Positions 7,301 through 61,581 of a stretch of DNA of 64,000 nt are shown here, piece after piece. The DNA comes from a virus. Each line of letters starts with the position of its first letter. The first letter of the stretch is position 1. Below the pieces are notes generated by a model that was not told the DNA's origin, searched no databases, and saw nothing but the letters and a program-made list of their open reading frames with translations. The stretch covers positions 1-64,000 of IMG/VR virus record IMGVR_UViG_3300047678_000239. One strand, given 5' to 3'. The translations under genes and the position numbers were made by a program.

Positions 7301-10300
7301 CGTGCCTGTGATACCGTTGGTGACGGTCAAAGAGCCTGTGATTGAGACTGAGCCTGTGAACTCGTGCGCGTTAGCCTGGCTGTTTCCGAAGCGGTTACTT
7401 CCACTTGAATAATTTACAGAACTTGAAATAGTTGTTACAATTAACGTTCCAACGTTCATCACTGACGCAGTGACTTGTCCAAATGTAACATTGTTGCCAG
7501 AACCAAAGGCAACTTCACCATTATTACTTAGTTGGGCGGAACTTGAAACAACATTGGTCGGAAGTATTGCAAATGACGCAGTAACTGCTCTGTTAGCCCA
7601 ACTTGAAGTTCCAAATACTGAACCGGTTATTTGTGTTATGGAAGCAAACGAAGATGTTATTGCACTTCCCGATATTTGAGTGTAATTTCCAACTTCTCCC
7701 ACAATGAAATATTTTCTTGGGTCCGTCCATCTCGGAGAACCAATGGCGGCTGCATCATATACGTTTGGAGAAGAATCACGAGCAATTGTTCCACCATTGT
7801 CATTGAGTGGTAGGTGAACAAGAGCTCCAACTTCCGTTAGTATAATGTCATCAATTGAAAAACTTCCCGACGCTGACAAAGTGAAGCCAAGTTGGAGCCC
7901 GTTGTTTGCGCCAGGAGTCCAATTGTTTCCCACTATATCAATGTTTCCATTTCCAAAACCACTTCCAAATGTATTTTGGACTATTCCACCCGATGTGTTG
8001 ACAACAGAGACGGTTCCTCCAGAAACGTTTCTTAGAGTTGCTCTTATTCTGTATGATTTAAAATGTGGTAGTAATGTATATGTTCCTCCCGCCGACAATC
8101 TGATACCAGAACCAGCAGTTGGGGCCATTACATCCAATTCCTGTGCACCAAAGTCTACTGAAGCGGAGCCGCCGGCACCAAATCCGCTCCAATTTGTTGT
8201 AGCTGAGGTGAAAACACTATCCTTTGCAGAATCAGCTATTCTGTTTGAACCGGTATCAGCCCATTTGAATCTGTCAGGAACTTCTCCACCCAATTCAAAT
8301 ATCTCTCTAACAGCGTCTGAGTTTAAAGCGCAATTATAAAGAGAAGCACAATATAAAGTGAAATTTCCATATACAGATTCAATCGTATTACATATCAAAT
8401 ATGTGTTATCGATTGATTCGGTTACAGCTACCGAACTTGTGAATGAAGGAACGGCATCGATGTAACCACACCAACTTCCCGAAGTTCTAACCAAAGAAAA
8501 ATGAACAACCTTCCCAGCATTTGAAGATACAAAATTTGAAATTGTTCCAACGTTTTGAAAAACATCAGCCGAATTTCTTTTTGCAACTACCAATCCTCCA
8601 CTTGTATCAAGGTAAGTATAGAGAGAGCTTGCGCCAGCATTAGCCACATTGCTAGGTCCCATATACAATCCCCAACCAGCGTTCGAGTCAGGAGGAGAGA
8701 TAGGAACCTTAGCAACAAATGATAGAGAACAGTCTCCAGTTCCAATTGTTATTCCGGATAATGTTGACCTTAGATAAGCAGTAGTTCTCTCAAATACAAC
8801 TCCCGTTCTTGGTGAGAGAGGATTTCTGATAGCCGCCACACTTACTCCATTGACTCTAACTTCCGTTGCTGACACACTTCCACTAACAGCAATTGAGCCT
8901 GTCACGGCCACTGAGCCTGTGAATTGATGTCTGTTTAACAGACTTGTTCCAAAGACGTTATTTCCACTCGAAGTCAAAGCAGTTAAAATAGCATTGCTTG
9001 CGGTTATAACGGAGGCAGTTATTTGAGAACTGTTGAATGAACTTGACAGAGATACCAATCTATTGCTGAATGATGCGGAGGAAGCAATATAAGATGATGA
9101 TACTGCTAATAGACTCGAGCTATCCGCCAACTCCTTCACAGTAAATGAAGCTGAAGCTATCTGAAATGAAGACGATAGAGCTAAAAGACTTCCACTATCT
9201 ACAAATATTCTTGTGCTAAATGATGCAGAAGACGCAACATAAGATGAAGAGAGAGCCACGAAACTCGAGCTTATATTTGTATTGGATGAGCTTAAAGCGT
9301 TGATTGTTACGGTAAACGCTGCGCTTACAGCCGTATCCGTAACCGACAATGATGATGAATATGTTTGAGCGTTTGTAGCAAATGAAGCAGTTCCAAACAA
9401 ACTACCAGTAATTTGGGAACCACTGATAATTGACGCGGTTATATTTTGAGTTACCGAAAGAGAGCCTGTTAGTATTAGACTTCCTGAAACATCCAATACG
9501 CCGGATTGAGGAGATTTTCCAACACCAACTTGGGAACCGCTAACAACCAATGCATTTGTTCCAAATTTACCCATGACTACTTTATCATCGCTGAATACTT
9601 CAAATATAGGAAGTCCGGATACGTCATTGATAGAAGACAAAGAGCCGCTCAAGCTGTCAGAGATACCGAATAGAGCGCCCGCGGCTCCGATGAACACAAG
9701 AGAACCGTCTGGCAGGACTTCCAATCTTATACTTGAAGTTGCGCTTCCTGAAAAGTTAAATGCTGAAGCGGTTATCTGCGAACTTCTAAATGAACCCGAA
9801 AGAGCAACCAATCTGTTAGAAAAGGATGCTGATGCAGCCACAAGATTTGTTAAACCAGCACCTGCTGATGCTGATAGGGCATTTATCGTTGTTGTAAATG
9901 ATGCGCTATTAGCGGTATAGCTTATAGAAAGGGAGCTCGAATAAGACTGAGCATTGATTGCAAACGATGCTGTTCCAAACAAGGAGCCCGTTATTTGTGA
10001 ACCACTTATTATAGAACCGGTAATCTGTGTGCTGTTGAATGAAGAAGAGAGAGCAACCAATCTCTGAGACAACGATGCTGAAGCAACAATGAATGAAGAA
10101 GAAACGGAGAGCAACGATGAAGACACCACAAGAGTCATCGAAATATCAGCTTGATTCGAAGCACTTAGAGCTTGAACAGAACCTGAAAGAGTTATCAAGC
10201 TAGAACTTGCCGCCAATAGAGATGAACTGTTTGTTCCCACGGCCGCTGTAAGCGTGTTTATGGTAGATGTAAATGCTCCACTTGTGGCAGTGTCACTGGT

Positions 10301-13234
10301 GCTGAACGATGATGAGTAAGCCTGTGCATTAATTGCAAACGATGCTGTTCCAAACAAACTACCAGTAATTTGTGAGCCGCTAATGATGGAAGCGGTGATT
10401 TGAGTCGAGCTGATAGAGCTAGATAATGCAATTAATCTATTGGAGAATGAAGCCGATGCCACAACCAAATTTGTTAGTCCAGCTCCAGCAGACGCTGATA
10501 GAGTATTAACGGTTGTGTTAAATGACGAGCTATTGGACGTATCGGTTAAACTAAAAGATGCACTTGTGGCGGTATAGCTGGTGCTAAATGATGACGAGTA
10601 AGTTTGAGCGTTAACGGCGAAGGACGCAGTTCCAAAGAATGAACCGGTAATCTGTGAACCGCTGATGATTGATGCGGTTATCTGGGTCGTATTGATTGAC
10701 GAAGAAATGGAGCCTATTCTATTGGAGAATGAGGCTGAAGCTAAAATCAAATTTGTCAATCCTGCTCCAGCAGACGCGGACAGAGCATTGATGGTAGTCG
10801 TAAATGACGCGCTCGTTACTGTATCACTTGTAGAGAATGAACTTGAATATGCTTGAGCGTTTGAAGCAAATGAGGAGGTTCCAAATAAACTTCCGGTAAT
10901 CTGCGAACCGCTTATTATCGACGCAGTAATTTGGGTTGAGCTAAACGAAGATGATAGGGCTACAAGTCTATTGGAGAATGAACCAGAAGATACAACAAGA
11001 TTGGTCAATCCAGCCCCAGCAGAGGAAGATAGTGCATTTATTGTGGTGGTAAACGATGCGCTATTTGCTGTGTCGGACAATGCAAATGAACTCGAATAAG
11101 ACTGAGCGTTAACTGCAAATGAAGCAGTTCCAAACAAACTACCAGTAATTTGGGAACCACTGATAATTGAAGCCGTTATTTGGGTTGTATTGAGAGACGA
11201 ACTTAAAGATGACAGTCTGTTAGAAAAAGATGCCGACGCAACTACAAGATTAGTCAATCCAGCACCAGACGAAGCGGATAGAGAATTGATGGTCGTGGTG
11301 AAGGAAGCGCTCGTAGCGGTGTCGCTTGTAGAGAATGAACTCGAATAAGATTGAGCGTTCTGAGAAAAAGAGGACGTTCCAAACAAACTACCGGTAATTT
11401 GAGAACCACTGATAATCGACGCAGTTATTTGGGTGGAGTTAAAAGAACTCGACAGAGCAATCAATCTGTTTGAAAATGATGCCGAAGATACAACAAACGA
11501 AGACGACAGAGCCAAAAGACTGGAACTTACAGCCGTATTATTGGTTGATATGGAATTTATCGTTGTTGTAAACGCCGCACTTACAGCCGTATCTGTAGCA
11601 GATAGAGAGGATGAATATGATTGAGCATTGACAGAGAATGAAGCCGTTCCAAACAACGAACCAGTAATTTGTGAGCCGCTAATGATGGAAGCGGTTATCT
11701 GGGTCGTGTTTAGAGAACTCGATAGAGCCACCAACCTATTAGAAAATGAAGCAGATGAAGCTATGAAAGACGAGGAGACGGCTAGTCCAGATACTATGTC
11801 AGCTTGATTAGATGCAGATAGAGCAGACAAAGAGCTTGATATAGGAGATACCGAAGAACTTAATGATTGTAAAGATGAAGATACCAACATCAAACTAGAG
11901 CTACTTGCGTTTGATGTGATTGAAAGACCCGTTATTGTTGAGGTGAACGAAGCACTGAGGACTGAGTTAGTTAAGCTGAATGACGCGGAATAATCGACTG
12001 CGTTTTGAGAGTATGAAGCAGTTCCTTTCAAACTTCCTGTAAATTGAGGAGCATTTACGATGGATGCTGTAATTTCTCCTGTTTGAATGGAAGATGCTGT
12101 TATGTTTCCAAGTGTAAGAGTTATAGCTGGAGTGGTGGATGGATTTGCTACCACACCACTTATTCCGTTTGCTGTAGTGACGCTTACATTTGTTACGGAA
12201 CCTCCTGTTACTGGAGCCCAAGATGCCGATATGGCATTAACTGCATTTACAGCCCACGAAGCTGTTCCAAATAAAGAACCCGTCGGAGACAAGCCGCTTG
12301 GTGGAGCCCAAGACGCACTAACAGAATTTAAAGCCCAACTTGCTGTTCCATTGACTGGGCCATTTACTGTCAGTGAACCGGTAATGATTACGGAACCAGT
12401 TAGTTCTTGAACATTTGATAAATCACTACCAAATTTATTGCTACCGCTACTATAAATAACCGACGAAGACAGTGTTGTTACAACCAACAATCCAACATTT
12501 ATAGCTGAAGCGGTTATTTGACCAAATACAACTTTATCGTTGGTAGTAAATTGAGCAGATGAAGAAATCAAACCTGGCTTATTCACTACGTTTGAATAAT
12601 CTACATACGAAGCAGTTTTAGTAAATTGAGAAAAAGAAGATGATATGGACGTATCTGAAGCAGACGCGGACTTAGCATATTGAGAAAACGAAGAAGATAT
12701 GGATGTGTCCGAAACCGACGAAGACTTAGCATACTGTGAAAATGAAGATGAATTTGAGTTTCCAGCAAAAGATGATGACAAACTCAAAGAAGCGTAATCG
12801 GTGTTTGTGGTATAAGACGCCGTTTGGGAGAATGTCGAATTGTTTGCTGATAGAGCAAATGAGGCTGTAGAAACGTATGAGGCTGTAGCGGCTCTTAATG
12901 CGAACGATGCCGTATTGGCCATGTTGGCCGAAGAAGCGGTTACAGCATAACTGGCCGATATTGTTCTTTGTGAAAAACTAGAGCTTATCGAATATGAAGC
13001 AGATAGTGCTGTTCCGGCGCTCAATGCGTATGATGATGTAGCGACATTCTCAGCATTGGCAGCATACGAAGCAGAAATAACAGATACGCCCGGTGGAAGA
13101 ATGGTAGAACCAACCAAGTGACCACTTGAATTTGTTTGTAAAATCAGGTTACTTCCACTGATATATACTTCAGTCCACGCACTGCCTGTGTCGTTTCTCT
13201 GAATTATAAAAACTGATTTAGGGTCTAGAGCCAT
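4325..13234 (-). CDS. Giant repeat-built, serine-rich tail fibre protein (2969 aa)
   Basis: The N terminus (DPKSVFIIQRNDTGSAWTEV) is followed by coiled SASYA-type repeats. The body is built from units of about 83-90 residues with the core ISGSQ-I/V-TGS-L/F-FGT-A/S-SF; nine copies can be counted. Each unit continues into YSSSF, SASFTTTIN and ASFSNRLVALSSSF stretches, consistent with a trimeric beta/coil fibre shaft. Around nucleotides 7690-8860 lies a non-repeat insert with a LamG-like sandwich (motifs GVVFERTTAYLRS, GKVVHFSLVR, SLYNCALNSDAV) and a second possible carbohydrate-binding module. The last 100 or so residues (HPTKPNKKLQHGVVEGPEHS, FPEYWSKLVD, ITVQLTPIGYYQ) match a C-terminal domain known from marine T4-like phage fibres and some bacterial surface proteins. 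The role is a long fibre that presents receptor-binding tips. One internal module is repeated at the left edge of the window. Confidence 0.8.
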   Translation of the reverse strand: MALDPKSVFIIQRNDTGSAWTEVYISGSNLILQTNSSGHLVGSTILPPGVSVISASYAANAENVATSSYALSAGTALSASYSISSSFSQRTISASYAVTASSANMANTASFALRAATASYVSTASFALSANNSTFSQTASYTTNTDYASLSLSSSFAGNSNSSSFSQYAKSSSVSDTSISSSFSQYAKSASASDTSISSSFSQFTKTASYVDYSNVVNKPGLISSSAQFTTNDKVVFGQITASAINVGLLVVTTLSSSVIYSSGSNKFGSDLSNVQELTGSVIITGSLTVNGPVNGTASWALNSVSASWAPPSGLSPTGSLFGTASWAVNAVNAISASWAPVTGGSVTNVSVTTANGISGVVANPSTTPAITLTLGNITASSIQTGEITASIVNAPQFTGSLKGTASYSQNAVDYSASFSLTNSVLSASFTSTITGLSITSNASSSSLMLVSSSLQSLSSSVSPISSSLSALSASNQADIVSGLAVSSSFIASSASFSNRLVALSSSLNTTQITASIISGSQITGSLFGTASFSVNAQSYSSSLSATDTAVSAAFTTTINSISTNNTAVSSSLLALSSSFVVSSASFSNRLIALSSSFNSTQITASIISGSQITGSLFGTSSFSQNAQSYSSSFSTSDTATSASFTTTINSLSASSGAGLTNLVVASASFSNRLSSLSSSLNTTQITASIISGSQITGSLFGTASFAVNAQSYSSSFALSDTANSASFTTTINALSSSAGAGLTNLVVSSGSFSNRLVALSSSFSSTQITASIISGSQITGSLFGTSSFASNAQAYSSSFSTSDTVTSASFTTTINALSASAGAGLTNLILASASFSNRIGSISSSINTTQITASIISGSQITGSFFGTASFAVNAQTYSSSFSTSYTATSASFSLTDTSNSSSFNTTVNTLSASAGAGLTNLVVASASFSNRLIALSSSISSTQITASIISGSQITGSLFGTASFAINAQAYSSSFSTSDTATSGAFTSTINTLTAAVGTNSSSLLAASSSLITLSGSVQALSASNQADISMTLVVSSSLLSVSSSFIVASASLSQRLVALSSSFNSTQITGSIISGSQITGSLFGTASFAINAQSYSSSLSISYTANSASFTTTINALSASAGAGLTNLVAASASFSNRLVALSGSFRSSQITASAFNFSGSATSSIRLEVLPDGSLVFIGAAGALFGISDSLSGSLSSINDVSGLPIFEVFSDDKVVMGKFGTNALVVSGSQVGVGKSPQSGVLDVSGSLILTGSLSVTQNITASIISGSQITGSLFGTASFATNAQTYSSSLSVTDTAVSAAFTVTINALSSSNTNISSSFVALSSSYVASSASFSTRIFVDSGSLLALSSSFQIASASFTVKELADSSSLLAVSSSYIASSASFSNRLVSLSSSFNSSQITASVITASNAILTALTSSGNNVFGTSLLNRHQFTGSVAVTGSIAVSGSVSATEVRVNGVSVAAIRNPLSPRTGVVFERTTAYLRSTLSGITIGTGDCSLSFVAKVPISPPDSNAGWGLYMGPSNVANAGASSLYTYLDTSGGLVVAKRNSADVFQNVGTISNFVSSNAGKVVHFSLVRTSGSWCGYIDAVPSFTSSVAVTESIDNTYLICNTIESVYGNFTLYCASLYNCALNSDAVREIFELGGEVPDRFKWADTGSNRIADSAKDSVFTSATTNWSGFGAGGSASVDFGAQELDVMAPTAGSGIRLSAGGTYTLLPHFKSYRIRATLRNVSGGTVSVVNTSGGIVQNTFGSGFGNGNIDIVGNNWTPGANNGLQLGFTLSASGSFSIDDIILTEVGALVHLPLNDNGGTIARDSSPNVYDAAAIGSPRWTDPRKYFIVGEVGNYTQISGSAITSSFASITQITGSVFGTSSWANRAVTASFAILPTNVVSSSAQLSNNGEVAFGSGNNVTFGQVTASVMNVGTLIVTTISSSVNYSSGSNRFGNSQANAHEFTGSVSITGSLTVTNGITGTASFATNAQTYSSSFATTVNALSASNQADIALSLGVSSSLLTVSASYVASSASFSTRTTNLVADSASFSGRTTTLEVASGSLSTRVTNLVADSASFSTRLVTLSSSLSTSDTANSASFTTTITALSASNQADIALSLSVSSSLLAVSSSFVVSSGSFSNRLVALSSSFGTSQLTAQNAVITAPSVSTLATAAVILGGSYGGAVVFNDGNYGNINVRNIGTTMDFSVSQSLSSTFTTGGNALRLGLVSSLFPSGTPSTSATVAALVVSGGFSTGLNVTVGTSVTASSANIPQVTGSLFGTASFATNALAYSSSFSTSNTSTSASFNTTISTLSSSISSRLPPNIVSSSAQLSNGGGIPFNSTNNITLGQITASIISGSQVTGSFFGTASFAQNAQTYSSSFSTSNTTDSASFTSTINALSASAGIGLTNLIVSSASFSNRLVALSSSFNSTQITGSFINVGQLTSSFGNLGKITASGVNIVSGPLSFNNGQTMFSSSGTQLSYYALGAGTGSRVLFDSSGTWMGIIRISRVSNGAMSDVIQGSLMDGSTDGMALSYQGGNQASIEIGSDLIRFNTLTATTPRATITSTGASFIVPITSSFINSTQITGSLYGTASFVAISGLPANLVSSSAQLSNGGGVAFTSANNLTVGQITGSSVTLSGTITGSTLYLSSGLISLVGGNSQIISTGNLFLDSAVGADVTLRSPSARKIIFQPGGGSPVGLVDANGLQITGSAIISSNTFHGTSLANVHQFSGSVSISSSLNVLSNFTASLATISTQLTSSAIQVGSGHIDIGSNTLGQSLGNTFSYGGNTFRNYGQTWYSDTPLGGTTLGISSFWGIRLFTNQIPQITISGSGTVSISGSVGIGTSNPAYKLEVNGSFAATSKSFVIKHPTKPNKKLQHGVVEGPEHSVYIRGRLDGKEIIEFPEYWSKLVDFSTITVQLTPIGYYQKLIVKKIDKTGILVENTNLINKYVECFYYVQAERVDIPKMEVEV
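9378..9433 (-). repeat. 56-bp exact repeat inside the giant fibre gene (partner 11115-11170)
   Basis: The 56 bases at 9378-9433 are identical to 11115-11170. Both encode the FGT-A-SF and ISGSQ repeat core. The other seven copies of the core are more diverged at DNA level, so this pair looks recently exchanged or converted. Confidence 0.9.
9598..9714 (-). repeat. 117-bp exact direct repeat of window positions 1-117
   Basis: Positions 9598-9714 are identical base for base to 1-117; the first mismatch is at 9715 versus 118. The copies encode the same fibre module in two different genes on the same strand. The left copy is cut by the window edge, so the identical tract may be longer. Confidence 0.95.
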
Positions 13235-30811: not shown

Positions 30812-32458
30812 TCAGAGTAACCAACGCAAATCCTCTTTGGTATGGTCTTTCAATCCAACGTTCATTTTCCAAGGGTCAACTTGAACACCGTAAATATTGC
30901 CGCCCATAATTGGTAGACGAGACGAAGGCTTCTGCCCTTCTGCTGTTGCTGAAGAACCAATTTTGCTTAAAAGTATTTTTGATATAGCCTCACTCTCTGT
31001 TCTAAGCCTCAAGGCGATGTCTCTTATCCACATTGCTATTCCTGCTGCCAGCACAAGGTCATCGTTGTAACCAGACATAGCTTCAGCCTTAGAAGTAACT
31101 CCAGATGCCTTCCAGATGAACACTTTCAATTCTTCAATCAGTCTAGAAGAATGTATAATAAATTCCTTGTTTCTAATATAACTCTCCAATTTCGAAATAA
31201 TGAGAGGGCGAGTTTTATTACTTGTGGTGAATCCAGGTGTCATCTTTCTTTCGGCACTGTTTATCTTATTGGTCATTTGACTTTCAACGTCAACATATTG
31301 AAGGTCGCTTGAACTATAAAATAGATTAGGATATTCATTGTCCAAAATTTCTTGGATGACGGCCCAACCAACGTTGGCATTTTCTACCACCAAAATAGCC
31401 ATGTTGTATTCGGTTGCCATAGACATGAGAGCTCGAGCAAAGTCTTTGGTTGGTATTTTTCCTTTATACTCAGATACTTGTTCCATTGATTCAATGTCGA
31501 TGATTTGGGCTCCTGAAAAGTCCGTTCCATCTCCTCTACTAACGTCTGCTGTAACCATGTATGATTTGCCGGCTGTTGGGTATTCCCAAATCCAATATCC
31601 CTTATCTATTCCACGCTTTTCAATTGGAGGCTTAACGTGTGTTTGTTCATACCAATCCAATACAGGAATTTCGATAACGGTATTACCTGAAGTAGAAAAT
31701 GTGCAATCACATTCTTGAGATGCTCCACGCTCTCCGAGAAGTTTGGTTTGGTTATCTCTCCACGCTTTGTCTCTTTCTGGATGCAAATGCCAAGGAAGAG
31801 TTATTCTCTTAAAATCATTTTCACTTTGTTCTGATTCAATCCACAATTTGTGAAAGAAGTTACCAACACCGTTTGGCGTCGAAAGGATGATAGCCTTACC
31901 TCCGGTAGATAGTGTTGATTGAGCGGACAGCCAAATTTCTTCAACGCCATCAATAAATGCAGCTTCGTCAATGATTAGAAGAGACAAAGCGGACGAACGA
32001 CCAGAGCTACCAGAAGATGAAGCTGCTTTGATTTGAGAACCATTTCCCAACTTTAGAGAGAGTTGGTTATCGATTACAATTTTCTGCTTCAACCAAGATG
32101 GTAAATTGTCATTAGCAAATCTAACTTTGGTAACAATGGACTTTGATGTTTCCTGTGTAATAGATAAACACAAAATTTCCTTGTCAGAATGAAAGGTCAT
32201 CAACCATAAAGCGTAAGCTGATACAAGGGTTGTAATTCCCATTTGACGAGACTTCAACACAATACTCTTGTTATGATTACTAAAATCCTTTAGTGTTTCA
32301 TCTTGAAAAGGATATGTCAAGAATGGTATAGTTCCACGCACAGGGTGCTGAATCTTAACATACTTCTTCATAAAATACAAAGGGTCGGTTGCACATCGTG
32401 CAAATTCCGACCTCATTATATTTTTGAGATTTTTGGTTGTATTTTCTGGATTAGCCAT
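30812..32458 (-). CDS. 17: Large terminase subunit, T4 gp17-like packaging motor
   Basis: A 548-residue protein (T4: 610). ATPase: an adenine-binding region with FLTYPFQDETLKDF, deviant Walker A SRQMGITT at residues 70-77, Walker B LLIIDEAAFI near 161-170, and coupling motif ILSTPNGVGN near 191-200. Nuclease: an RNase H-like fold starting MVTADVSRGDGTDFSG (catalytic D305), a middle acidic strand LVVENANVGWAV, and the last acidic pair in GYNDDLVLAAGIA. It cuts concatemers and pumps DNA into the prohead through the portal. The first 8 nt overlap the end of the Cys/His-dyad gene, so their translation is probably linked. N- and C-terminal domains are both complete. Confidence 0.95.
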   Translation of the reverse strand: MANPENTTKNLKNIMRSEFARCATDPLYFMKKYVKIQHPVRGTIPFLTYPFQDETLKDFSNHNKSIVLKSRQMGITTLVSAYALWLMTFHSDKEILCLSITQETSKSIVTKVRFANDNLPSWLKQKIVIDNQLSLKLGNGSQIKAASSSGSSGRSSALSLLIIDEAAFIDGVEEIWLSAQSTLSTGGKAIILSTPNGVGNFFHKLWIESEQSENDFKRITLPWHLHPERDKAWRDNQTKLLGERGASQECDCTFSTSGNTVIEIPVLDWYEQTHVKPPIEKRGIDKGYWIWEYPTAGKSYMVTADVSRGDGTDFSGAQIIDIESMEQVSEYKGKIPTKDFARALMSMATEYNMAILVVENANVGWAVIQEILDNEYPNLFYSSSDLQYVDVESQMTNKINSAERKMTPGFTTSNKTRPLIISKLESYIRNKEFIIHSSRLIEELKVFIWKASGVTSKAEAMSGYNDDLVLAAGIAMWIRDIALRLRTESEAISKILLSKIGSSATAEGQKPSSRLPIMGGNIYGVQVDPWKMNVGLKDHTKEDLRWLL

Positions 32459-32840
32459 GACCGAGTTGTTCGTATCTATTACCTATTTTAGAATCATATG
32501 TTCCAAAAAAAATTCTTGGTAAAGCCTCATTTACGCTTGGTGAAAATTGACTAATACTACCATCTAAAATTTTATCATCAACTTCTACCCAGTCGTGGTT
32601 TACTTGGTATTCATCATGTCCACTTTCATCATCATATTCCATGTATTTGAATGCGTCTGGATTATCCAATCTAAAACCTCCGATAACGTGTATCGATTTA
32701 ATATTTTTTTCTTTTAAAAGGTCAATTATTTTTGATGTAATAATTCCACAAGCTCCGGTTGGATTTCCAACTGACCTCAAAGCTTTCTCTGCGAGAGCAA
32801 GTATTAATTCCTCTCTTGGAATTTCTTTCGACAAATTCAT
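32451..32840 (-). CDS. Papain/transglutaminase-like Cys-His protein of unknown role
   Basis: A 129-residue protein. A conserved-looking cysteine in GNPTGACGIITSKI (C33) is followed by the strand IHVIGGFRL and then by VNHDWVEVDDKILDGSIS, a strand carrying His with a following Asp. The order Cys, then H-x-WVEVD, then D matches the triad layout of transglutaminase-like and NlpC/papain-fold proteins found in many phages. It could cut or crosslink protein, or remodel peptidoglycan; no substrate is suggested. It overlaps TerL by 8 nt on one side and the zinc-ribbon gene by 4 nt on the other, in a place where T4 has the small terminase. Enzyme class inferred by motif. Confidence 0.5.
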   Translation of the reverse strand: MNLSKEIPREELILALAEKALRSVGNPTGACGIITSKIIDLLKEKNIKSIHVIGGFRLDNPDAFKYMEYDDESGHDEYQVNHDWVEVDDKILDGSISQFSPSVNEALPRIFFGTYDSKIGNRYEQLGHG

Positions 32841-33451
32841 TTGTTCAAAATAACGTTAAGTTTCTCGATTTCTTCTGTAAGTCTTTTAACTTCTTTCAAA
32901 CAACGAACGTGGTCTTTTTTCAAGGACTTCAATAAGTCATTTCTACGAACATCGTTCCATTCTTCAACGAGACCGTTTGAATTAACGAAGGTTAAGACTT
33001 TGGTAGTCTTCATGTATTCAAGACCATCCTTAACTTTCGCCTTTATGTCCAAGATATAACCGAGCTCATTTTCAAACAGTTTCTTTTGTTCATATGCCGC
33101 CCACTTGCCTTCAAGCTTCAATCGCGTTTCGTATTCAACCAAACAATCAAGACACATGCCCGTCTTTGAGAACATTTTTTCATCCTGTTTGGTTCCCCAA
33201 CGAATTTCTTTTTTACAAGAAGTGCATCGAACGTTTGTCTCTTCACGAACAATGTCCATAATTGGAGTGTGAGAGGTCTTTCCATAAGACTTTTGAATCC
33301 AAGTTTTACCCTTAGAATCGGTCCAAATTTCTCCTTCTTTTCGTGTGGAATTATCCTCCACACCTTCATAGCCCACTTGAGTAATCGGCCTTTCGCCGTT
33401 CAAGTATTGCTGAACCATCTCAATATTCGATTTATTTTTTGCGTGTTTCAT
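32837..33451 (-). CDS. Zinc-ribbon plus coiled-coil protein; possible small terminase analogue
   Basis: A 204-residue protein. Four cysteines in two pairs, CTSCKKEIRWGTKQ and CLDC (about residues 76-101), form a likely zinc ribbon. The N-terminal half has EGEIWTDSKGKTWIQKSYGK. The C-terminal 60 residues are a charged helix with heptads (RNDLLKSLKKDHVRCLKEVK). T4 gp16, the small terminase, is mostly coiled coil and lies just before gp17. Here this gene is two genes upstream of TerL and could serve that purpose, but zinc ribbons are not usual in gp16, so the assignment is speculative. It is coupled to the downstream gene by a 4-nt overlap. Confidence 0.45.
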   Translation of the reverse strand: MKHAKNKSNIEMVQQYLNGERPITQVGYEGVEDNSTRKEGEIWTDSKGKTWIQKSYGKTSHTPIMDIVREETNVRCTSCKKEIRWGTKQDEKMFSKTGMCLDCLVEYETRLKLEGKWAAYEQKKLFENELGYILDIKAKVKDGLEYMKTTKVLTFVNSNGLVEEWNDVRRNDLLKSLKKDHVRCLKEVKRLTEEIEKLNVILNK

Positions 33452-33483: not shown

Positions 33484-36336
33484 TTAGAGGTTATCGCCCG
33501 AATTGGTTATTTTTTTATCTAACAAAAACCTCAATAGATAAATGATGTAACTTACTCCCTTATAATTGGTAGAACCAATGGCTTCTTTGAGTTTCTTAAA
33601 TTTATCTACCACAAACTTTATTTGTTGGTCAGTTTTTTCAGCGGTGTCTGGGTCAACCGTTGGCTTTACTTTTTCCCATTGTTTTAATGTATCCAACAGT
33701 TCTTTTGAAGATGTGGCTACGGCATCGCTTGCTCTTTTGCGAATATTTTCCGAATCAAGTCTGTCTCCATTTTCTCTGAGCTCTGCAAATACAGCCAATG
33801 CTATTTTATTTAAAGTGACTTCATCTGTTCCAGGCCCAACGGTTTGTCTAGCTGATTGGATAGCCTTGTTTATAGTAGCGGCATGCGTGGTTTTAAATCC
33901 AAACACATTCTTCAAAAATTCTCCATCCAATACTTTTTCCAAGTTTCCAAGAGCTTTTCTAGTTCCCCAGGTTTTTTCAGCGATTTGGTGAAATATTTCC
34001 GAAGTTCCTTTTATAAAAATATCTTCGTCTGGAAGCCTTATTTTCATCACAACCCCTTCAACTGGATATTTTCCGTCGCCATGAGATAGGAATGAATTGA
34101 TTTTCTCAGCATATTGATTCAATGAGCCTTGCAATTGCTTTCTAATGGTCAATATCATCTTCTTGAGGGCGAGCTTCTCCGGTGTATCCTTCCTCGACCT
34201 CAATAATGTCATAGCTCCAGCTAATTTTTTAGGGTCTTCAATGAAATCTTGAACTCCACTGAAATCGAATACAAGACCCTCTCTTGAAAGATTTCCATGT
34301 TGTAAAATGTTATACACCTTCCACTCCGGGTCTTCGGTGTTGATTATCATATTTAGAATTCCATCGGATGTTGTATCTCCATCCTTACTCACAGCTCCAA
34401 AGCAAACAAATGCTCCTTTATTTCCCAATTTTGCTCTATTATATTTAGTTGAAGCAAACACCACATCACCGAATTCATTTCCCTTGTGAGTCAATACCGG
34501 AAACATTTCTGATGTTATTTTGAAAAATCCATATTGCTTAAAGGCGGCCTGTAATCTCCTTTGGAACGGAACATAACTATTCAAAAACAGTAGTGCTTGA
34601 TAAAAATGTGAAGTAAATGGATTGTTGAATCGTTCCGCTAAATCTACAGTTATTTCTCCGCTATTCGCTGATTCGAGATAGAATTTTCCGGATTGATTTA
34701 ATCCAAACATACATGGTGAACCGTCAAGTTTTTCAGTGACGCTTACATTATCGTTGACTGACAAATCCAATTTTCCCGACTTTACAAGAGGCTGAATTTT
34801 CTGAAGAAATCTAAGGAAAGCTCCGTCAGACATTTCACTTGTTCCATGAAATCTTTGAATAGAAATCTTATCTTCTGTTAAACTCGGATTCTTTGAGTCT
34901 GTGTGGGCAGATATGCTTTCTTTGTATCCCTGAATTACTTTATCTCTTATTTCGGGAAACTTAAATGAATTCGACTTGAACAGTGCGTAGACTTTTTCGA
35001 AGGTATCAATGTCGGAGAACGATTTATCGTCACCAAATAGAAATTTAGAGACAAAATTCATATCGTCGGATTTGAATTCTCTTGAAATTTCCTTTCTTTT
35101 ACCCTTTGGAGTGAGTGTAAATTTTTGAAGATAAAAACCTTCTCCTGGGGTCAGCATGTATTTCTGTTTAACTCCTTCAATTGAGCCCTCATCTTCAATC
35201 AATTGAGCGAATATTTCCATTATGAAAAGATTTCTATACTTTGCTTTATATTCACTACCTGGAGCTCCACTATACAGTTTATCTCTCCAATTTCTTTTTC
35301 CCAACATTATATCAAGTTGAACAAATGGTGTGGCGTCTTCTTTGTCCGCTCCAACAAATTCTTGAGGAAATCCATTTGGTTGTTGAGCAATGCCCAATAA
35401 ATGAATTTGATTTAGGCCTGGTGCAAAAACAAACGACTTTGGTGCTCCAATTTTTTCGAAATAAGCCTTAATCGCTGGAAACAATTCTTCTTTGGTTGGA
35501 TTTACTTTTAAAAACTTTGCTAATTCATCTGAATCAATAGCGATGTCAATATCGCCCATAATATCTTTTTGATGATTGCCGATTTTCGAATATTGAATTT
35601 TGTCCAAACCATATAGTTCGAGGGTATGAGAAATCGTGGAATCTAAATTACTTTGTTTGACCTGCGACACTCCTTGGTCAAACATGTTTCCACCTTCTTT
35701 CAGAGGAATCTTTTTTTCTGATTGGCTAAATTTCTTAAACATCAAATCTGACAATTTTAAATCATACCATCCAAATATCTGTTTAAATAAAGTCGGAGAA
35801 TTTTGTGTGGCTATTAAATTTCGTATTTCCGTTCCGCTTAGTTCTCTACCAGAAACCTTAATAGAAGTGTGTGGTAACGTGAGAACATATCCATGTTTTT
35901 TGAAACCTTGTAAATTGTTTTTGTTTTTCTCATAATCTTGAAGATAGGTGGCCTCGCCGCTTTTCTTCGTTCCAATTACCAGTCTACCAGCATCCTTTTC
36001 ACCAAATCCAAAAACAATAGCTGTGTCATCGCTTAGTTTTTCCGTTATTTCGACAGCTGAATATGGGCTCTTTGTTTGAATAATTTTATTTGCAGGAACT
36101 CCATACTTCATCCAAATTTTCTTTTTATCATCAAAATTAAGCGGACTCTTCGCTGGGTCGGTTAAATTTGATGTAGCGACGAATACGTTGTTGGCTCCAA
36201 ATTTCGATACTAACCATTTATACGTTTCAAAATGGTGTAAGCCCGCAGGCTGAAATCGTCCAGGATAAATAGCGACAACTTTATCAGCGCCCATTTCCTC
36301 AATTAGAGATTCAATCAAACTGTCGGATAACGTCAT
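33484..36336 (-). CDS. Three-domain nucleotidyl-transfer protein: NMNAT-like, pol-beta-like NTase, ligase-like
   Basis: A 950-residue protein. Residues 18-180 are a cytidylyltransferase/NMNAT-like domain: AIYPGRFQPAGLHHFETYKW gives the first phosphate-binding loop and an HxxH-like signature (GLHHF), and SGTEIRNLI the ISSTxIR-like motif. Residues 215-420 carry a pol-beta-type core: IGNHQKDIMGDIDIAI (D262, D264) and VQLDIM (D342). Residues 500-800 resemble a covalent ligase: VTEKLDGSPCMFG with K536 as candidate nucleophile, REGLVFDF and VEGVVMKIRLP as motif IV-like elements, and IKGTSE as motif V. The last 130 residues are helical. Known marine phages carry EKLDG ligase-like proteins; the combination with the other two domains is unusual. 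Possible roles are NAD synthesis, tRNA or RNA repair. TATTTATA box 3 nt before ATG. Confidence 0.65.
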   Translation of the reverse strand: MTLSDSLIESLIEEMGADKVVAIYPGRFQPAGLHHFETYKWLVSKFGANNVFVATSNLTDPAKSPLNFDDKKKIWMKYGVPANKIIQTKSPYSAVEITEKLSDDTAIVFGFGEKDAGRLVIGTKKSGEATYLQDYEKNKNNLQGFKKHGYVLTLPHTSIKVSGRELSGTEIRNLIATQNSPTLFKQIFGWYDLKLSDLMFKKFSQSEKKIPLKEGGNMFDQGVSQVKQSNLDSTISHTLELYGLDKIQYSKIGNHQKDIMGDIDIAIDSDELAKFLKVNPTKEELFPAIKAYFEKIGAPKSFVFAPGLNQIHLLGIAQQPNGFPQEFVGADKEDATPFVQLDIMLGKRNWRDKLYSGAPGSEYKAKYRNLFIMEIFAQLIEDEGSIEGVKQKYMLTPGEGFYLQKFTLTPKGKRKEISREFKSDDMNFVSKFLFGDDKSFSDIDTFEKVYALFKSNSFKFPEIRDKVIQGYKESISAHTDSKNPSLTEDKISIQRFHGTSEMSDGAFLRFLQKIQPLVKSGKLDLSVNDNVSVTEKLDGSPCMFGLNQSGKFYLESANSGEITVDLAERFNNPFTSHFYQALLFLNSYVPFQRRLQAAFKQYGFFKITSEMFPVLTHKGNEFGDVVFASTKYNRAKLGNKGAFVCFGAVSKDGDTTSDGILNMIINTEDPEWKVYNILQHGNLSREGLVFDFSGVQDFIEDPKKLAGAMTLLRSRKDTPEKLALKKMILTIRKQLQGSLNQYAEKINSFLSHGDGKYPVEGVVMKIRLPDEDIFIKGTSEIFHQIAEKTWGTRKALGNLEKVLDGEFLKNVFGFKTTHAATINKAIQSARQTVGPGTDEVTLNKIALAVFAELRENGDRLDSENIRKRASDAVATSSKELLDTLKQWEKVKPTVDPDTAEKTDQQIKFVVDKFKKLKEAIGSTNYKGVSYIIYLLRFLLDKKITNSGDNL

Positions 36337-56925: not shown

Positions 56926-59900
56926 TTAGGTTGTGACAGAACTAATAATAACTGGCAAGGAATTATCCAAAATACCACTTCCAGACTGTATTGTGGTTCT
57001 TTCTGTCTGTAGTCCCTTTTTGAAGATTCCCGATGGCCTGCTATAGTTGTCCAAAGTAACCATTGGATTACGGTTATTTAGGGATTTTTTATATTTGTAA
57101 TGGGTTCCATAGTATCCGTTAAGTGGATAGGAATTTAATGGGGAGTTCTGTGAGGACAAATTGTGTCTATATGAATACGCTGAGTCTCTGATTCTGCTAA
57201 AGAAGAATCCACTTGCATTTCCAACAAGAATATCAAACAAAGAAGTATCAGAGTCGAGCGATGATAGGCTTGCTGTCATCATTCCGTTCAACAGATACAC
57301 CTGATAGTTGCTATTATATACGTCGATAGCATTAACTTGAAAATTTGAGCCAGAGCGAATTGTTGCCGTAATTCCCAATCTTACGTTCGCTGAACCACTG
57401 ACCAAGCTGCTGGACACCATATTTGCATCCAGTCCATAATTTTGGAAGCTTCCCACCAACGTAACATCGTTGGATACCGGACCAGACAGATAATTTCCTC
57501 CGGACAATGTAATACCGCTAATAGAACCAATGAAATTCATATTGGCTGCAATAATTTTGAAATCTGGAATGGTTGTTACTGTTGGAAACTTAGAAATATT
57601 AACCTGCTCGTAAGGGTGGATAATCGTTTTAAATTCTCCTCTGTTCGTAGCGTATGCCTCTGCGTCTGACATAGAAGAGGTAGGTTTGTTCTTATTTCTT
57701 ACGGAATAAGATTTATCAATTGGAATAACCTCAACACGCCAATAGTCGTCTTTATAATATGTGACACCATCTTTTGCAAGGATTTCAAATCCAAATGGCT
57801 CCAATCTGTCTGGGAAAAAGAATCCTTCCGAATCTTCATATAGAGACGTTCCTGTTACAATAGTTTTGATGGATTGCGTCAATTGAGGAACCAATTCACT
57901 TGGAACATCCTTTGAAACAAACATTAAATCAGCAACATTGATGTTAACCGTTTCCTGAACGATTGGTTTCAACTGAATTTTTGGTCTTTCAAGGATGGAC
58001 GGTTCTATCAACAATCCGTCTACAAGCTTGGCTCTAACAGGAACCAATTTTTTAATATACTTGAATAGAGACTTATCAAAGTAAGCTCTAACCAAATTCA
58101 TGAAGCTTTGATAATCAACTTGTCCAAATCCTTGACTGTAAAATACCTCTTTAAACTTTTCAAATCTTCCATAGGTTCTCTCATATACATCAGACGGCTT
58201 TCCAATCAAGTCTCCAAATTCAAAATTACCAAAGAACTTGATTATTTCGAGATTTATCTGCTCTGTAGGTGAGAAAAATATTCCAAGTTTATTTGTATCA
58301 ACGGTGGAGTCTTCTGTGGCTCTTAGCGTAGAACGACTGTCAGGCGACAGGTTGGACGATAGAATCTGTTGTTTGTAATTTACTTTATTACTTCTGAACT
58401 TATTCGAACCAAAATTTGGCAGATTCATTGTCTGCCTTGTCTCAAACTTCTTGAATTGATATGGGAAGGTTGGAGTAGCAGTGTAAGTATCACACTCAAC
58501 AGAATTCAATATTTGGGAACCGGCGAATGGAAAATTAGACGCGGAGATTTCTGAGGACATTGTTCTAAACGCAGAGTTTTGAATTGTCAGATTTCCGGAG
58601 CCTGTATTTAGATTTATAGGGGTAGAGAACGAAATTCTTACCAAGTTTTTTTCAACCATCGACTGTGGGTTATCTGTGTCATACGCTCCTTTGAATGATG
58701 CGTGGTGATTGAATCTGGTCGTTGATAAGAAATTTTCCCATATCTTGATTTCATCAATTGTTCCAAAGAAAGCCTCTGGGTCCAAACTCAACGAGGATGT
58801 GTTTTGCTGGTAATTTCCAAGATACAAACGAGTCGGCTGTCTAAAAGATGTATTATAGCTTCCGCTCAAAAACATGCTGGCGGATGCTTGGAAAGTTGTT
58901 CTCGAATCTTCATTTCTGCGAACCAAAACACTGTATCTTTGTGGGTAGTTATCGATGGTCGCTATTGAAGCTGTTGGACTTATGTTGAAATCAGCACTTA
59001 CTTTCGATTTTCTCAATACCAGAGAATATACGTCTCCATTAAAGAATGGTGCTCTTTCAGTCATCGCTGTTAGGGTGTTGCTTCCGGTGTTTTGAATTGT
59101 GAAAAATGCCTTACCCCAATCGTTACCCTTCTCCTTAACAATACCAATAGCCCAATTGGTTCCACCAACTGCCAATCTAAAAATCTTTCCCTCATCACTT
59201 GTTTTATTTGGTTCAAAAGAGAAATTGAATTCGAGGGATTGAGCACTTCCCGTCCAAGGAACGTTGAAGTATTCCCCACTTCCGCTGAAGTATGGCGAAT
59301 ATTTTGTCTCATCAATAATGTATAGTGAATTTTGGTCTAGTTCCGTTGTATATTCAACTCCACCATATTCTTTGATTTGAATGATGTTTCTTGGAATTCC
59401 ATAGCAACTAATCAAAGCGTTTATAGCAGCCTCAGTTCCCTTGGACTTCAATATGAATGGAAGGCTGTTTAGGATTCTCTTCCATATGAACTTGTTTCTA
59501 TCGTCTTCTGACATATCTCCAACCTTGTCATATAGCGGAGAATCTACATCAAAATCGCTCTTGGAAAACGACGCTAGTATCAGCGGAAGGTTTTCTCTAC
59601 CAATTTCTGGCTCCCAACCGAGAGAAGACAACATGTTATAAACAACGTCTTTCGAAATTCCTTCTATTTCCGAGCTAGAAGCGTCATTCTTTTCAGTAAA
59701 TTGAGTGATGTATAGAGTTAAGTTGTCAAAGTAATGACCAATCAAGTTCACAAATCTGACATACTCGTAGTTTTCCGCAACTTCAATTACACTTGACGGA
59801 AGATTGTTTTGCAAACTGTCTCCATTATCTCTGTCATATCTTGAGCCAGAAGACATTCCACTATAAACTCTCGTGTGTTCTGAGAACCAATTTGGATTGT

Positions 59901-61581
59901 TATATAGGAAATTTTCATATCCATCCATAGACGATTCTAGAGAATTCCATTCGGCATTTAAGTCCGACTTCTCTTTGATAAGAAATTCGTCAGTTGGTAA
60001 CAGAACCAACTTCACATCAATGTCAGCTATCAAAGAACGAATTTCTTCAATTCGGTTTTGTTTGTATTCGAACACCCCCAATCTCTCTTCAACAGAAGAG
60101 AATTTTACAAAGTTTTCAAAATATCTGTAGTCTACGTTTGTTGGAGCTTTTTCTTCAATCTTATAACGAAGTTTTGAATACAATTCGTCATACAAAGAAC
60201 CAGACTCTCCTACAATGCTTTCTAGAGAATGTTCAACGGTTGAATTTCCTTCATTTTCCAACTTGATGTTGAAATTTGGTCCCTTAATTGGTATTGTGAC
60301 AACCGCCTGATTTGAAAAGAAGTATAAATCTTGAAGAATCGGAGAACTTACCGAAATGTTGCTAATCCAAAGATTGTCGCCCACGGAGTAACCATCTGGC
60401 AAGGTGTCTCTCAATTTCAAAATCAATCGGCTATGGGTTGATTCATCAGTAGATGGAACCACGCCCGTTCTTACAATTGGAAGAATTGTTCCATCTCCAA
60501 AGTTGATGACGTTCTTTAAGTATCCTGAGAAATTGTCTTTGTATCGATTTTCTATAAAATTGATTGATGGAACGAATATTGAATCGAAATATATCTGTCT
60601 AAAGAAAGAAACTATATCGTCATAATTTTGAGGACGATTGTTTGTTATTTGATTGAGCTCTTGATTTAAAATGTAAGAGAATAGCGTATAAAAATAATCT
60701 TGAATTTCATCAAACGTTGTGATTGATTCATAGTTCTCAAACAAGAAGTTTTTAAATTGGTCAAGGATACCAAATACATTTCTTGTGCTGACCATTCCGC
60801 CACTCTTTAATGAACCTTTCTGGACTCCGTAATATGTGTCTGTGATGAAATTTACCACATCTATATCAGTCTTCAATGAATAGAAAAATTTGATAGATTG
60901 GTCTGTGTCTGGATTTTTCTTTGCTATGTCAATGTATGTTGTGTAAAGTTGGACCTTCTCTAAAGATTCTATCAAATCGTCTATGATGTATTTGGGCTGA
61001 ATTTTTGAATTGGAAAATAGGTCAAATTCCTGATTCAACTTAATATCGACTGGATTGGTAGATTGAACCAAAACATGAGGTATCACAGCAATTTCTGTTC
61101 TACTTGGAGAAATCTCATCAATGACCAACTTTTGAGAAGAATCAAATGGATTTCCTACGACATTTCTAACCGGAAGAATTCCAATCTTGTAATTACCTTC
61201 TTGAATAGAAAGTGATTTCAATACATCTTGAACATTCATTACAATGCTTTGAGTATTTTCATTTCCAACTACTGCAAAATTGCTCTGATATTTTGAATAT
61301 GAATAAACTCTCGTGCTGTTGGTTACGTCAACATACGAACGAGTAAATGGGGTGTATTTACCTTTACTACCGTTCACTGATGCATCAAAATAAGAAGACG
61401 TAACCAAGTCACCTTCTGTAGAAAATACAGTTACCTCAACCAAATCTTTATCACTCTCTCCAAATGGGAAGCTTTTAACCTCACCAACTGTTAAAAATGA
61501 CAATTCATCCGCTGTATAGAAGTATGCGGTGCTTAGAGAAGCAGTTTCCTTTGCAAAGGCTTTGAAACTTGAATAATTCAT
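56926..61581 (-). CDS. Large tail/baseplate structural protein with LamG-like insert (1551 aa)
   Basis: A 1551-residue protein. The N-terminal part has strands such as ADELSFLTVGEVKSFPFG and VDVTNSTRVYSYSKYQSNF. The middle contains a coiled, charged stretch (YKQNRIEEIRSLIADIDVKL). Around residues 745-970 there is a LamG-like sandwich with LRLGNYQQ-like strands (RLYLGNYQQNTSSLSLDPEA, then FFGTIDEIKIWENF). The C-terminal third has SQILNSVECDTY and VNINVADLMFVSKD. Proteins of this size and mix in marine T4-like phages are tail or baseplate components, but no T4 homologue is recognised. It overlaps the next upstream gene by 4 nt. Confidence 0.6.
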   Translation of the reverse strand: MNYSSFKAFAKETASLSTAYFYTADELSFLTVGEVKSFPFGESDKDLVEVTVFSTEGDLVTSSYFDASVNGSKGKYTPFTRSYVDVTNSTRVYSYSKYQSNFAVVGNENTQSIVMNVQDVLKSLSIQEGNYKIGILPVRNVVGNPFDSSQKLVIDEISPSRTEIAVIPHVLVQSTNPVDIKLNQEFDLFSNSKIQPKYIIDDLIESLEKVQLYTTYIDIAKKNPDTDQSIKFFYSLKTDIDVVNFITDTYYGVQKGSLKSGGMVSTRNVFGILDQFKNFLFENYESITTFDEIQDYFYTLFSYILNQELNQITNNRPQNYDDIVSFFRQIYFDSIFVPSINFIENRYKDNFSGYLKNVINFGDGTILPIVRTGVVPSTDESTHSRLILKLRDTLPDGYSVGDNLWISNISVSSPILQDLYFFSNQAVVTIPIKGPNFNIKLENEGNSTVEHSLESIVGESGSLYDELYSKLRYKIEEKAPTNVDYRYFENFVKFSSVEERLGVFEYKQNRIEEIRSLIADIDVKLVLLPTDEFLIKEKSDLNAEWNSLESSMDGYENFLYNNPNWFSEHTRVYSGMSSGSRYDRDNGDSLQNNLPSSVIEVAENYEYVRFVNLIGHYFDNLTLYITQFTEKNDASSSEIEGISKDVVYNMLSSLGWEPEIGRENLPLILASFSKSDFDVDSPLYDKVGDMSEDDRNKFIWKRILNSLPFILKSKGTEAAINALISCYGIPRNIIQIKEYGGVEYTTELDQNSLYIIDETKYSPYFSGSGEYFNVPWTGSAQSLEFNFSFEPNKTSDEGKIFRLAVGGTNWAIGIVKEKGNDWGKAFFTIQNTGSNTLTAMTERAPFFNGDVYSLVLRKSKVSADFNISPTASIATIDNYPQRYSVLVRRNEDSRTTFQASASMFLSGSYNTSFRQPTRLYLGNYQQNTSSLSLDPEAFFGTIDEIKIWENFLSTTRFNHHASFKGAYDTDNPQSMVEKNLVRISFSTPINLNTGSGNLTIQNSAFRTMSSEISASNFPFAGSQILNSVECDTYTATPTFPYQFKKFETRQTMNLPNFGSNKFRSNKVNYKQQILSSNLSPDSRSTLRATEDSTVDTNKLGIFFSPTEQINLEIIKFFGNFEFGDLIGKPSDVYERTYGRFEKFKEVFYSQGFGQVDYQSFMNLVRAYFDKSLFKYIKKLVPVRAKLVDGLLIEPSILERPKIQLKPIVQETVNINVADLMFVSKDVPSELVPQLTQSIKTIVTGTSLYEDSEGFFFPDRLEPFGFEILAKDGVTYYKDDYWRVEVIPIDKSYSVRNKNKPTSSMSDAEAYATNRGEFKTIIHPYEQVNISKFPTVTTIPDFKIIAANMNFIGSISGITLSGGNYLSGPVSNDVTLVGSFQNYGLDANMVSSSLVSGSANVRLGITATIRSGSNFQVNAIDVYNSNYQVYLLNGMMTASLSSLDSDTSLFDILVGNASGFFFSRIRDSAYSYRHNLSSQNSPLNSYPLNGYYGTHYKYKKSLNNRNPMVTLDNYSRPSGIFKKGLQTERTTIQSGSGILDNSLPVIISSVTT

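What the first reader, a model, noticed from the sequence alone, without database searches (positions are those of the whole stretch)
33484..36336. One 950-residue polypeptide with three nucleotidyl-transfer domains
In order the sequence shows an NMNAT-like domain (GRFQP, GLHHF, SGTEIR), a pol-beta-type core (GDIDIAI with D262/D264, then D342) and a covalent-ligase-like region (KLDG at K536, EGLVF, EGVVMK, IKG). Separate versions exist in phages; all three in one chain is unusual. A plausible purpose is repair of RNA or DNA ends with NAD or ATP made or sensed by the first domain, for example against host tRNA-cutting defences.
Basis: partly seen in the sequence, partly recalled or inferred. 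Interest (0 to 1): 0.8.

Follow-up and report, generated by a model that had tools for sequence, protein, structure and literature searches.

The report
Phage three-enzyme end-repair fusion protein
One phage gene encodes three different nucleotide-transferring enzymes in a single chain (a NAD-synthesis-like domain, a DNA-polymerase-beta-like domain and an RNA-ligase-like domain), and many uncultured phages reuse the same modules fused, split or reordered, which points to an undescribed toolkit for mending broken RNA or DNA ends.

Summary
In detail: a 950-residue ORF lies at 33484-36336 on the MINUS strand. It carries a HIGH-superfamily (NMNAT/PPAT-like) domain at about 11-210, a Pol-beta nucleotidyltransferase at 213-485 and an RNA-ligase-like domain at 486-815, then about 135 unassigned residues. 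The Pol-beta fold is well supported (AlphaFold pLDDT 93; Foldseek to DNA polymerase beta, probability 1.00). The ligase is supported by motifs I/III/IV/V, by hhalign to relatives that include a Pfam RNA_ligase member, and by a weak model whose 13 best PDB hits are all ligases. The exact architecture recurs in 6 other IMG/VR contigs (51-58% identity). At least 23 more proteins join the same module types with other ligase-like subfamilies, five in permuted order. Elsewhere the modules sit in adjacent, often overlapping genes, also in cultured phages. A Zn-ribbon gene follows almost every HIGH fusion, terminase often lies downstream, and HAD phosphatases are recurrent neighbours or fusions. Best reading: a phage end-healing-and-sealing enzyme, probably for RNA. 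The HIGH domain's role is unsolved; its HxGH motif is GxHH. No record in the cultured-phage collection has this architecture, and the held papers do not describe it. New variant of a known kind.

The parts
33484..36336 (-). 950-aa three-domain protein (HIGH NTase - Pol-beta NTase - RNA-ligase-like - C-terminal region)
   Evidence: Open frame; whole architecture conserved at 51-58% identity in L086-L091
35707..36306 (-). HIGH-superfamily nucleotidyltransferase domain, residues ~11-210; GRFQPAGLHH and SGTEIR
34882..35700 (-). Pol-beta-superfamily nucleotidyltransferase, residues 213-485; D262, D264, D342
   Evidence: AlphaFold pLDDT 93.3, pTM 0.88; Foldseek DNA pol beta prob 1.00, E 3e-6; D-x-D and Q-x-D invariant in 38 sequences
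33892..34881 (-). RNA-ligase-like covalent nucleotidyltransferase, residues 486-815; motif I K536-LDG, motif III E610, motif IV E760-GVVMK, motif V K776
   Evidence: Motifs aligned across subfamilies; hhalign prob 96, E 4.6e-9 to a ligase group that includes a PF09414 member; L106 passes the PF09414 cut-off; Foldseek top 13 hits all ligases although the model is weak
33487..33891 (-). C-terminal region, residues 816-950, conserved, function unknown
   Evidence: Conserved in L086-L091; fold not tested
32837..33451 (-). 204-aa CxxC...CxxC (zinc-ribbon-like) protein, conserved partner gene
   Evidence: Homologue within 2 kb downstream of the N-terminal-HIGH fusion gene in 111 of 116 testable loci
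30812..32458 (-). T4-type large terminase, context only
   Evidence: PF03237 E=7.5e-10, phrog_2 E=1.4e-41; terminase lies downstream of HIGH fusions in many loci

Best explanation
The gene encodes a multi-domain phage enzyme for healing and sealing broken nucleic-acid ends, most likely RNA (for example tRNA cut by host defence ribonucleases). Shown here: the Pol-beta NTase fold, the covalent-ligase motif set with a link to the Pfam RNA_ligase family, and a HIGH-superfamily domain, in one chain; and these modules recur fused, split or permuted in other phages with HAD phosphatases as common neighbours. Inferred mechanism: a phosphatase (in trans where present) clears the 3' end; the Pol-beta domain (D262/D264/D342) adds back lost nucleotides at the 3'-OH; the ligase domain (Lys536-AMP) adenylates the 5'-phosphate and joins the ends. 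The HIGH domain is proposed either to make or recycle a nucleotide cofactor or to act on the 5' phosphate itself; this step is the least certain.
For: Pol-beta fold: pLDDT 93 model, Foldseek prob 1.00. Ligase: window residues match PF09414 weakly (E=0.025), as do L086 and L091 (0.05); L106, a ligase-NTase fusion, passes PF09414 (33.7 vs 27 bits); hhalign of the window ligases to the L106/L099 type gives prob 96, E 4.6e-9; motifs I/III/IV/V co-align; Foldseek top hits include REL1 RNA editing ligase and an archaeal RNA ligase (prob 0.94 and 0.92). Coupling: fused, split and permuted combinations; Agrobacterium phage Atu_ph07 and Sinorhizobium phage Phosso carry a KLDG ligase-like gene overlapping the NTase gene; cyanophage P-TIM40 carries DUF6267 and cytidyltransferase genes side by side. 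HAD phosphatase-like segments adjacent or fused in several lineages, one weakly resembling the HAD of Swiss-Army-Knife RNA repair proteins (E=0.012). The ligase + Pol-beta NTase + HAD combination matches the RNA-repair pattern described for jumbo phages (PMC7824862).
Against: No biochemical test. The window ligase domain alone does not reach the PF09414 cut-off, and its model is weak (pLDDT 63, best Foldseek E 6e-3). Nothing found distinguishes RNA from DNA as substrate. The window gene sits in a tail/packaging cluster, not an early region, and the 97-kb record has no tRNA genes. No kinase domain was found in the window protein.
Confidence: 0.55

Rival explanations
1. The same three activities serve DNA: the protein repairs nicks, gaps or ends of the phage genome around packaging or just after injection, which would explain its place beside the terminase.
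For: Terminase lies downstream of HIGH fusions in all cyt-ligKIDG (12) and cyt-ligKTDG (19) loci that hold enough downstream sequence, and the Zn-ribbon gene follows. Foldseek matches DNA polymerase beta and, lower down, DNA ligases. P-TIM40 and Melnitz keep the split modules next to uvsX/recA and primase-helicase genes.
Against: The ligase links are to RNA ligases. Synteny can reflect common descent of a gene cluster rather than function. Whether the C-terminal region is an OB fold, as DNA ligases have, was not tested.
Confidence: 0.22
2. NAD-recycling ligase: the ligase uses NAD+ and releases NMN, and the HIGH domain turns NMN + ATP back into NAD+.
For: The nearest curated relatives of the HIGH domain are NMN adenylyltransferases (L099 E=1.2e-7, L005 E=3.6e-7); HIGH and ligase modules are repeatedly fused or adjacent.
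Against: The HxGH catalytic motif is [GSA]xHH in most members; no NMNAT cut-off is met; no family search showed an NAD+-binding Ia-type domain ahead of the ligase, and the ligase link is to RNA ligases, which are ATP-dependent by general knowledge.
Confidence: 0.08
3. A virion-packaged, injected polyvalent protein in the sense of PMC5512222 that modifies host molecules rather than repairing nucleic acid.
For: Multi-domain, beside head and packaging genes; the LR756508 homologue adds a ParB-like domain; polyvalent proteins include Pol-beta NTases.
Against: Polyvalent Pol-beta NTases described there are minimal versions mainly in firmicute mobile elements; the repeated coupling to ligase and HAD modules points to end repair.
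Confidence: 0.1

Closest known systems
RNA-repair systems of jumbo phages: ATP-grasp RNA ligase + RlaP Pol-beta NTase + HAD phosphatase (PMC7824862)
   Same: RNA-ligase-type enzyme working with a Pol-beta NTase and HAD phosphatases; NTase and ligase-like genes overlap in Atu_ph07 and Phosso
   Different: This NTase is not RlaP (no PF10127 match in the record; hhalign to an RlaP sequence fails); here the modules are one chain with an added HIGH domain
T4 Pnkp / Rnl (own knowledge) and bacterial Pnkp1-Rnl-Hen1 RNA repair (PMC4411300)
   Same: End-healing plus ligase logic in one assembly
   Different: No kinase or methyltransferase domain found here; Pol-beta and HIGH domains instead
NadM/NadR-type NMN adenylyltransferases of phages (PMC9503650)
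   Same: HIGH-superfamily domain, GRFQP and SGTxxR-type motifs
   Different: GxHH in place of HxGH; fused to ligase and Pol-beta modules, not Nudix or kinase
DUF6267 (PF19782), widespread in marine cyanophages, function unknown
   Same: KWDGSP...GGEGYV motifs; found in the same fusion slot after NTase and HIGH domains
   Different: The window ligase does not match PF19782 and profile comparison gave no support
Polyvalent proteins (PMC5512222)
   Same: Several unrelated enzyme domains in one phage polypeptide near packaging genes
   Different: Different domain set; virion packaging untested

Membership tests
RNA_ligase (PF09414) / covalent nucleotidyltransferases | Motifs I (KxDG), III, IV (EGxV), V (K) | tested here: met
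   K536-x-D-G, E610, E760-G and K776 invariant in the close relatives; motifs I, III and IV align with more distant ligases, motif V only approximately
RNA_ligase (PF09414) / covalent nucleotidyltransferases | Pfam curated cut-off (27 bits) | tested here: not met
   Window 15.2 bits; relative L106 33.7 bits, linked to the window ligases by hhalign E 4.6e-9
RNA_ligase (PF09414) / covalent nucleotidyltransferases | Ligase fold | tested here: inconclusive
   Model pLDDT 62.8; Foldseek top 13 all ligases but best E 6e-3
RNA_ligase (PF09414) / covalent nucleotidyltransferases | Auto-adenylation and RNA sealing | not testable with these tools
   Needs protein
Pol-beta superfamily | G...DxD plus third carboxylate | tested here: met
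   G253, D262/D264, D342 (alignment positions G41, D50, D52, D130) invariant in 38 sequences
Pol-beta superfamily | Fold | tested here: met
   pLDDT 93.3; Foldseek DNA pol beta prob 1.00, E 3e-6; TM-score 0.35-0.39, so core fold only
RlaP (PF10127) | Family profile match | tested here: not met
   No match in G000; hhalign prob 0.1 against the Atu_ph07 RlaP
NMN adenylyltransferase (NadM/NadR type) | HxGH catalytic motif | tested here: not met
   GLHH in the window; [GSA]xHH in most of the family
NMN adenylyltransferase (NadM/NadR type) | Curated NCBIfam cut-offs | tested here: not met
   Window E=0.067; best relative 31.5 bits vs 127
HIGH superfamily (broad) | Sequence relation to CTP_transf_like | tested here: met
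   Relatives pass PF01467 (L005 35.3 bits; P-TIM40 33.7 bits); profile hits PPAT/NMNAT in PDB
DUF6267 (PF19782) | Family profile match of the ligase-like part | tested here: not met
   No hit for the window; hhalign A3-A6 prob 2.5
Polyvalent proteins | Packaged in virion and injected | not testable with these tools
   Context only

The most novel reading that the evidence does not exclude
The HIGH domain with its clade-specific GxHH motif has been repurposed to act on nucleic-acid 5'-phosphates (direct adenylylation or capping, NTP + 5'-phosphate giving a pyrophosphate-linked end), so that one chain holds three chemically different nucleotidyl transfers acting on the two ends of the same break. 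This would be a new biochemical class of end-repair or end-capping enzyme.
Probability: 0.12. Interest if true: 0.85.

Novelty: new variant of a known kind. Interest (0 to 1): 0.62.

Why it matters
Hundreds of environmental phages carry pieces of this module set, mostly named 'cytidyltransferase' or 'hypothetical', including DUF6267, found in 67 cultured-phage records, mostly cyanophages. Tying them together as one shuffled HIGH / Pol-beta / ligase (plus HAD phosphatase and Zn-ribbon) system gives a testable function to several orphan families, and would add a new architecture to phage end repair, possibly against RNA-cutting defences.

Tried and rejected
Plus-strand reading: not an ORF. Single-sequence PDB search: no hits. 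Profiles of the ligase and NTase parts against PDB sequences: only chance hits, so folds were tested by AlphaFold + Foldseek. hhalign of the window ligase alignment to the DUF6267, KIDG and KTDG groups failed; those groups are therefore called ligase-like by shared motifs and equivalent position only, not proven homologues of the window ligase. RlaP membership rejected. PTIM40_181 was suspected of being a third split module but does not match the NTase profiles. Cellular origin: a pattern scan of the collection of 84,980 prokaryote genomes gave only three MAG contigs. Literature searches found no description of the architecture; the library holds open-licence papers only.

Full report
Observation. 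The finding's coordinates are an exact ORF of 950 aa on the minus strand. The window is part of a 97,158-base IMG/VR virus record. The gene sits in a head/packaging and tail cluster: prohead protease, T4-type portal and T4-type terminase on its downstream side, and a 2199-aa tail-like protein upstream.

Domain 1, HIGH superfamily (about 11-210). The whole protein hits no Pfam or NCBIfam family, but hits phrog_395 cytidyltransferase (E=2e-4). A four-sequence profile finds PPAT (E=1.8e-4) and NMNAT (E=0.007) chains in the PDB. Relatives pass PF01467, and the nearest curated families of the better-conserved relatives are mostly NMN adenylyltransferases. In most of this family, the window included, the HxGH motif is replaced by [GSA]xHH; canonical HxGH survives in LR756508, the L098/L099 proteins and the permuted proteins. 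SGTxxR-type motifs are kept. So it is a HIGH-superfamily domain nearest NMNAT, but an NMNAT function is not supported by the motif test.

Domain 2, Pol-beta NTase (213-485). A 38-sequence alignment keeps G, D-x-D and Q-x-D invariant. AlphaFold gives pLDDT 93.3 and Foldseek matches DNA polymerase beta with probability 1.00, E 3e-6; TM-scores of 0.35-0.39 show that the core fold is shared, not the whole protein. It is not RlaP, the known ligase-associated Pol-beta family.

Domain 3, RNA-ligase-like (486-815). Motifs I (K536-LDG), III (E610), IV (E760-GVVMK) and V (K776) are invariant in close relatives. The Pfam RNA_ligase match is weak for the window (E=0.025), but the ligase part of L106, itself fused to the same NTase family, passes the cut-off (33.7 bits vs 27), and hhalign links the window ligases to that group with motifs I, III and IV in register (prob 96, E 4.6e-9). 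The AlphaFold model is poor (pLDDT 62.8), so its Foldseek result is supporting only; still, its 13 best PDB hits are all ligases, led by T. brucei RNA editing ligase 1 and including an archaeal RNA ligase.

Comparative anatomy. In capped scans of IMG/VR, distinct proteins had these layouts: HIGH-NTa-ligA 6 (window included), HIGH-NTb-DUF6267 17 (four cut short or interrupted), HIGH-NTb-ligKIDG 1, NTb-DUF6267-HIGH 5 (order changed), HIGH-ligKIDG 38, HIGH-ligKTDG 20, HIGH-DUF6267 2, NTb-DUF6267 14, NTa-DUF6267 2, and single modules. NTa and NTb are homologous (hhalign prob 97). L146 joins a window-type ligase to a C-terminal HIGH-like domain with canonical HKGH; L106-L108 are ligase-NTa fusions; L099 has HIGH-ligase and NTa as neighbouring genes; L115 and L121 have NTb and DUF6267 as adjacent genes. 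In cultured phages the modules are split or only partly fused: Atu_ph07 and Phosso have a KLDG ligase-like gene overlapping the NTase gene; P-TIM40 has DUF6267 followed directly by a cytidyltransferase; Mel-JY01 has a HIGH-ligase-like fusion. Three modules coming together repeatedly, in different orders and with different ligase subfamilies, is strong evidence that they act in one process.

Partners. A CxxC...CxxC protein (window 32837-33451) has a homologue within 2 kb downstream of the HIGH-fusion gene in 111 of 116 testable loci, but not in the five permuted ones. HAD phosphatase-like genes are adjacent to or fused with the modules in several lineages (phrog_415 polynucleotide kinase match in L006; weak NT5C match in L105; neighbours). 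A terminase gene lies downstream of HIGH fusions in all KIDG and KTDG loci with enough downstream sequence, at 0.9-4.1 kb. Locus counts include overlapping fetches of the same contigs, so they are descriptive.

Mechanism. Established family knowledge and PMC7824862 describe phage RNA repair as ligase + Pol-beta NTase that restores lost nucleotides + HAD phosphatase. This protein fits that logic in one chain, with an extra HIGH domain whose role is open: cofactor supply or recycling, regulation, or direct action on 5'-phosphates. Steps shown: domains, motif conservation, one well-modelled fold, module coupling. Steps inferred: activities, substrate, order of reaction, any anti-defence role. A DNA-end role near packaging remains a serious rival.

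Novelty. No record in the 50,697-record phage collection covers 80% of the protein, and the held literature does not describe the architecture. Multi-domain phage end repair is known as a kind; this module set is a new variant.

Noticed in passing
L006 and L008, 1063-aa ORF: HIGH domain followed by a HAD segment resembling T4 polynucleotide kinase/phosphatase (phrog_415, E=5e-6), other segments, and a KLDGQN ligase-like part in one chain.
   Followed up: partly
L139 4947-9871 (418-kb contig): Three NTase-family genes side by side, the last (989 aa) also carrying a HIGH-type domain near residue 785.
   Followed up: no
L061 5995-8448: HIGH-ligase fusion with an insert between the domains that has a CxxC...H segment and a DHKYSIKDG stretch resembling a homing-endonuclease-type HNH insert.
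   Followed up: no
L005 (LR756508.1) 7635-10382: Jumbo-phage homologue with a ParB-N-like domain ahead of the HIGH and ligase-like domains.
   Followed up: partly
window 32451-32840: 129-aa protein between the Zn-ribbon gene and terminase with a weak match to a papain-like toxin-fold family (PF15645, E=0.012, below cut-off); homologue also next to terminase in L142/L143.
   Followed up: no
L223 12127-15631 and L224 373-1689 (same virus record, beyond the window): UDP-galactopyranose mutase, two glycosyltransferase-like genes and a weak SprB-repeat match; SprB repeats would fit a Bacteroidota host, not tested further.
   Followed up: no
window 4325-13234 and 56926-61581 (minus strand): Very long uncharacterised ORFs of 2969 and 1551 aa.
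   Followed up: no
L026 2847-5326: HIGH-NTb-DUF6267 gene interrupted: the DUF6267 part continues in a separate ORF from 4466, a frameshift or assembly error.
   Followed up: no
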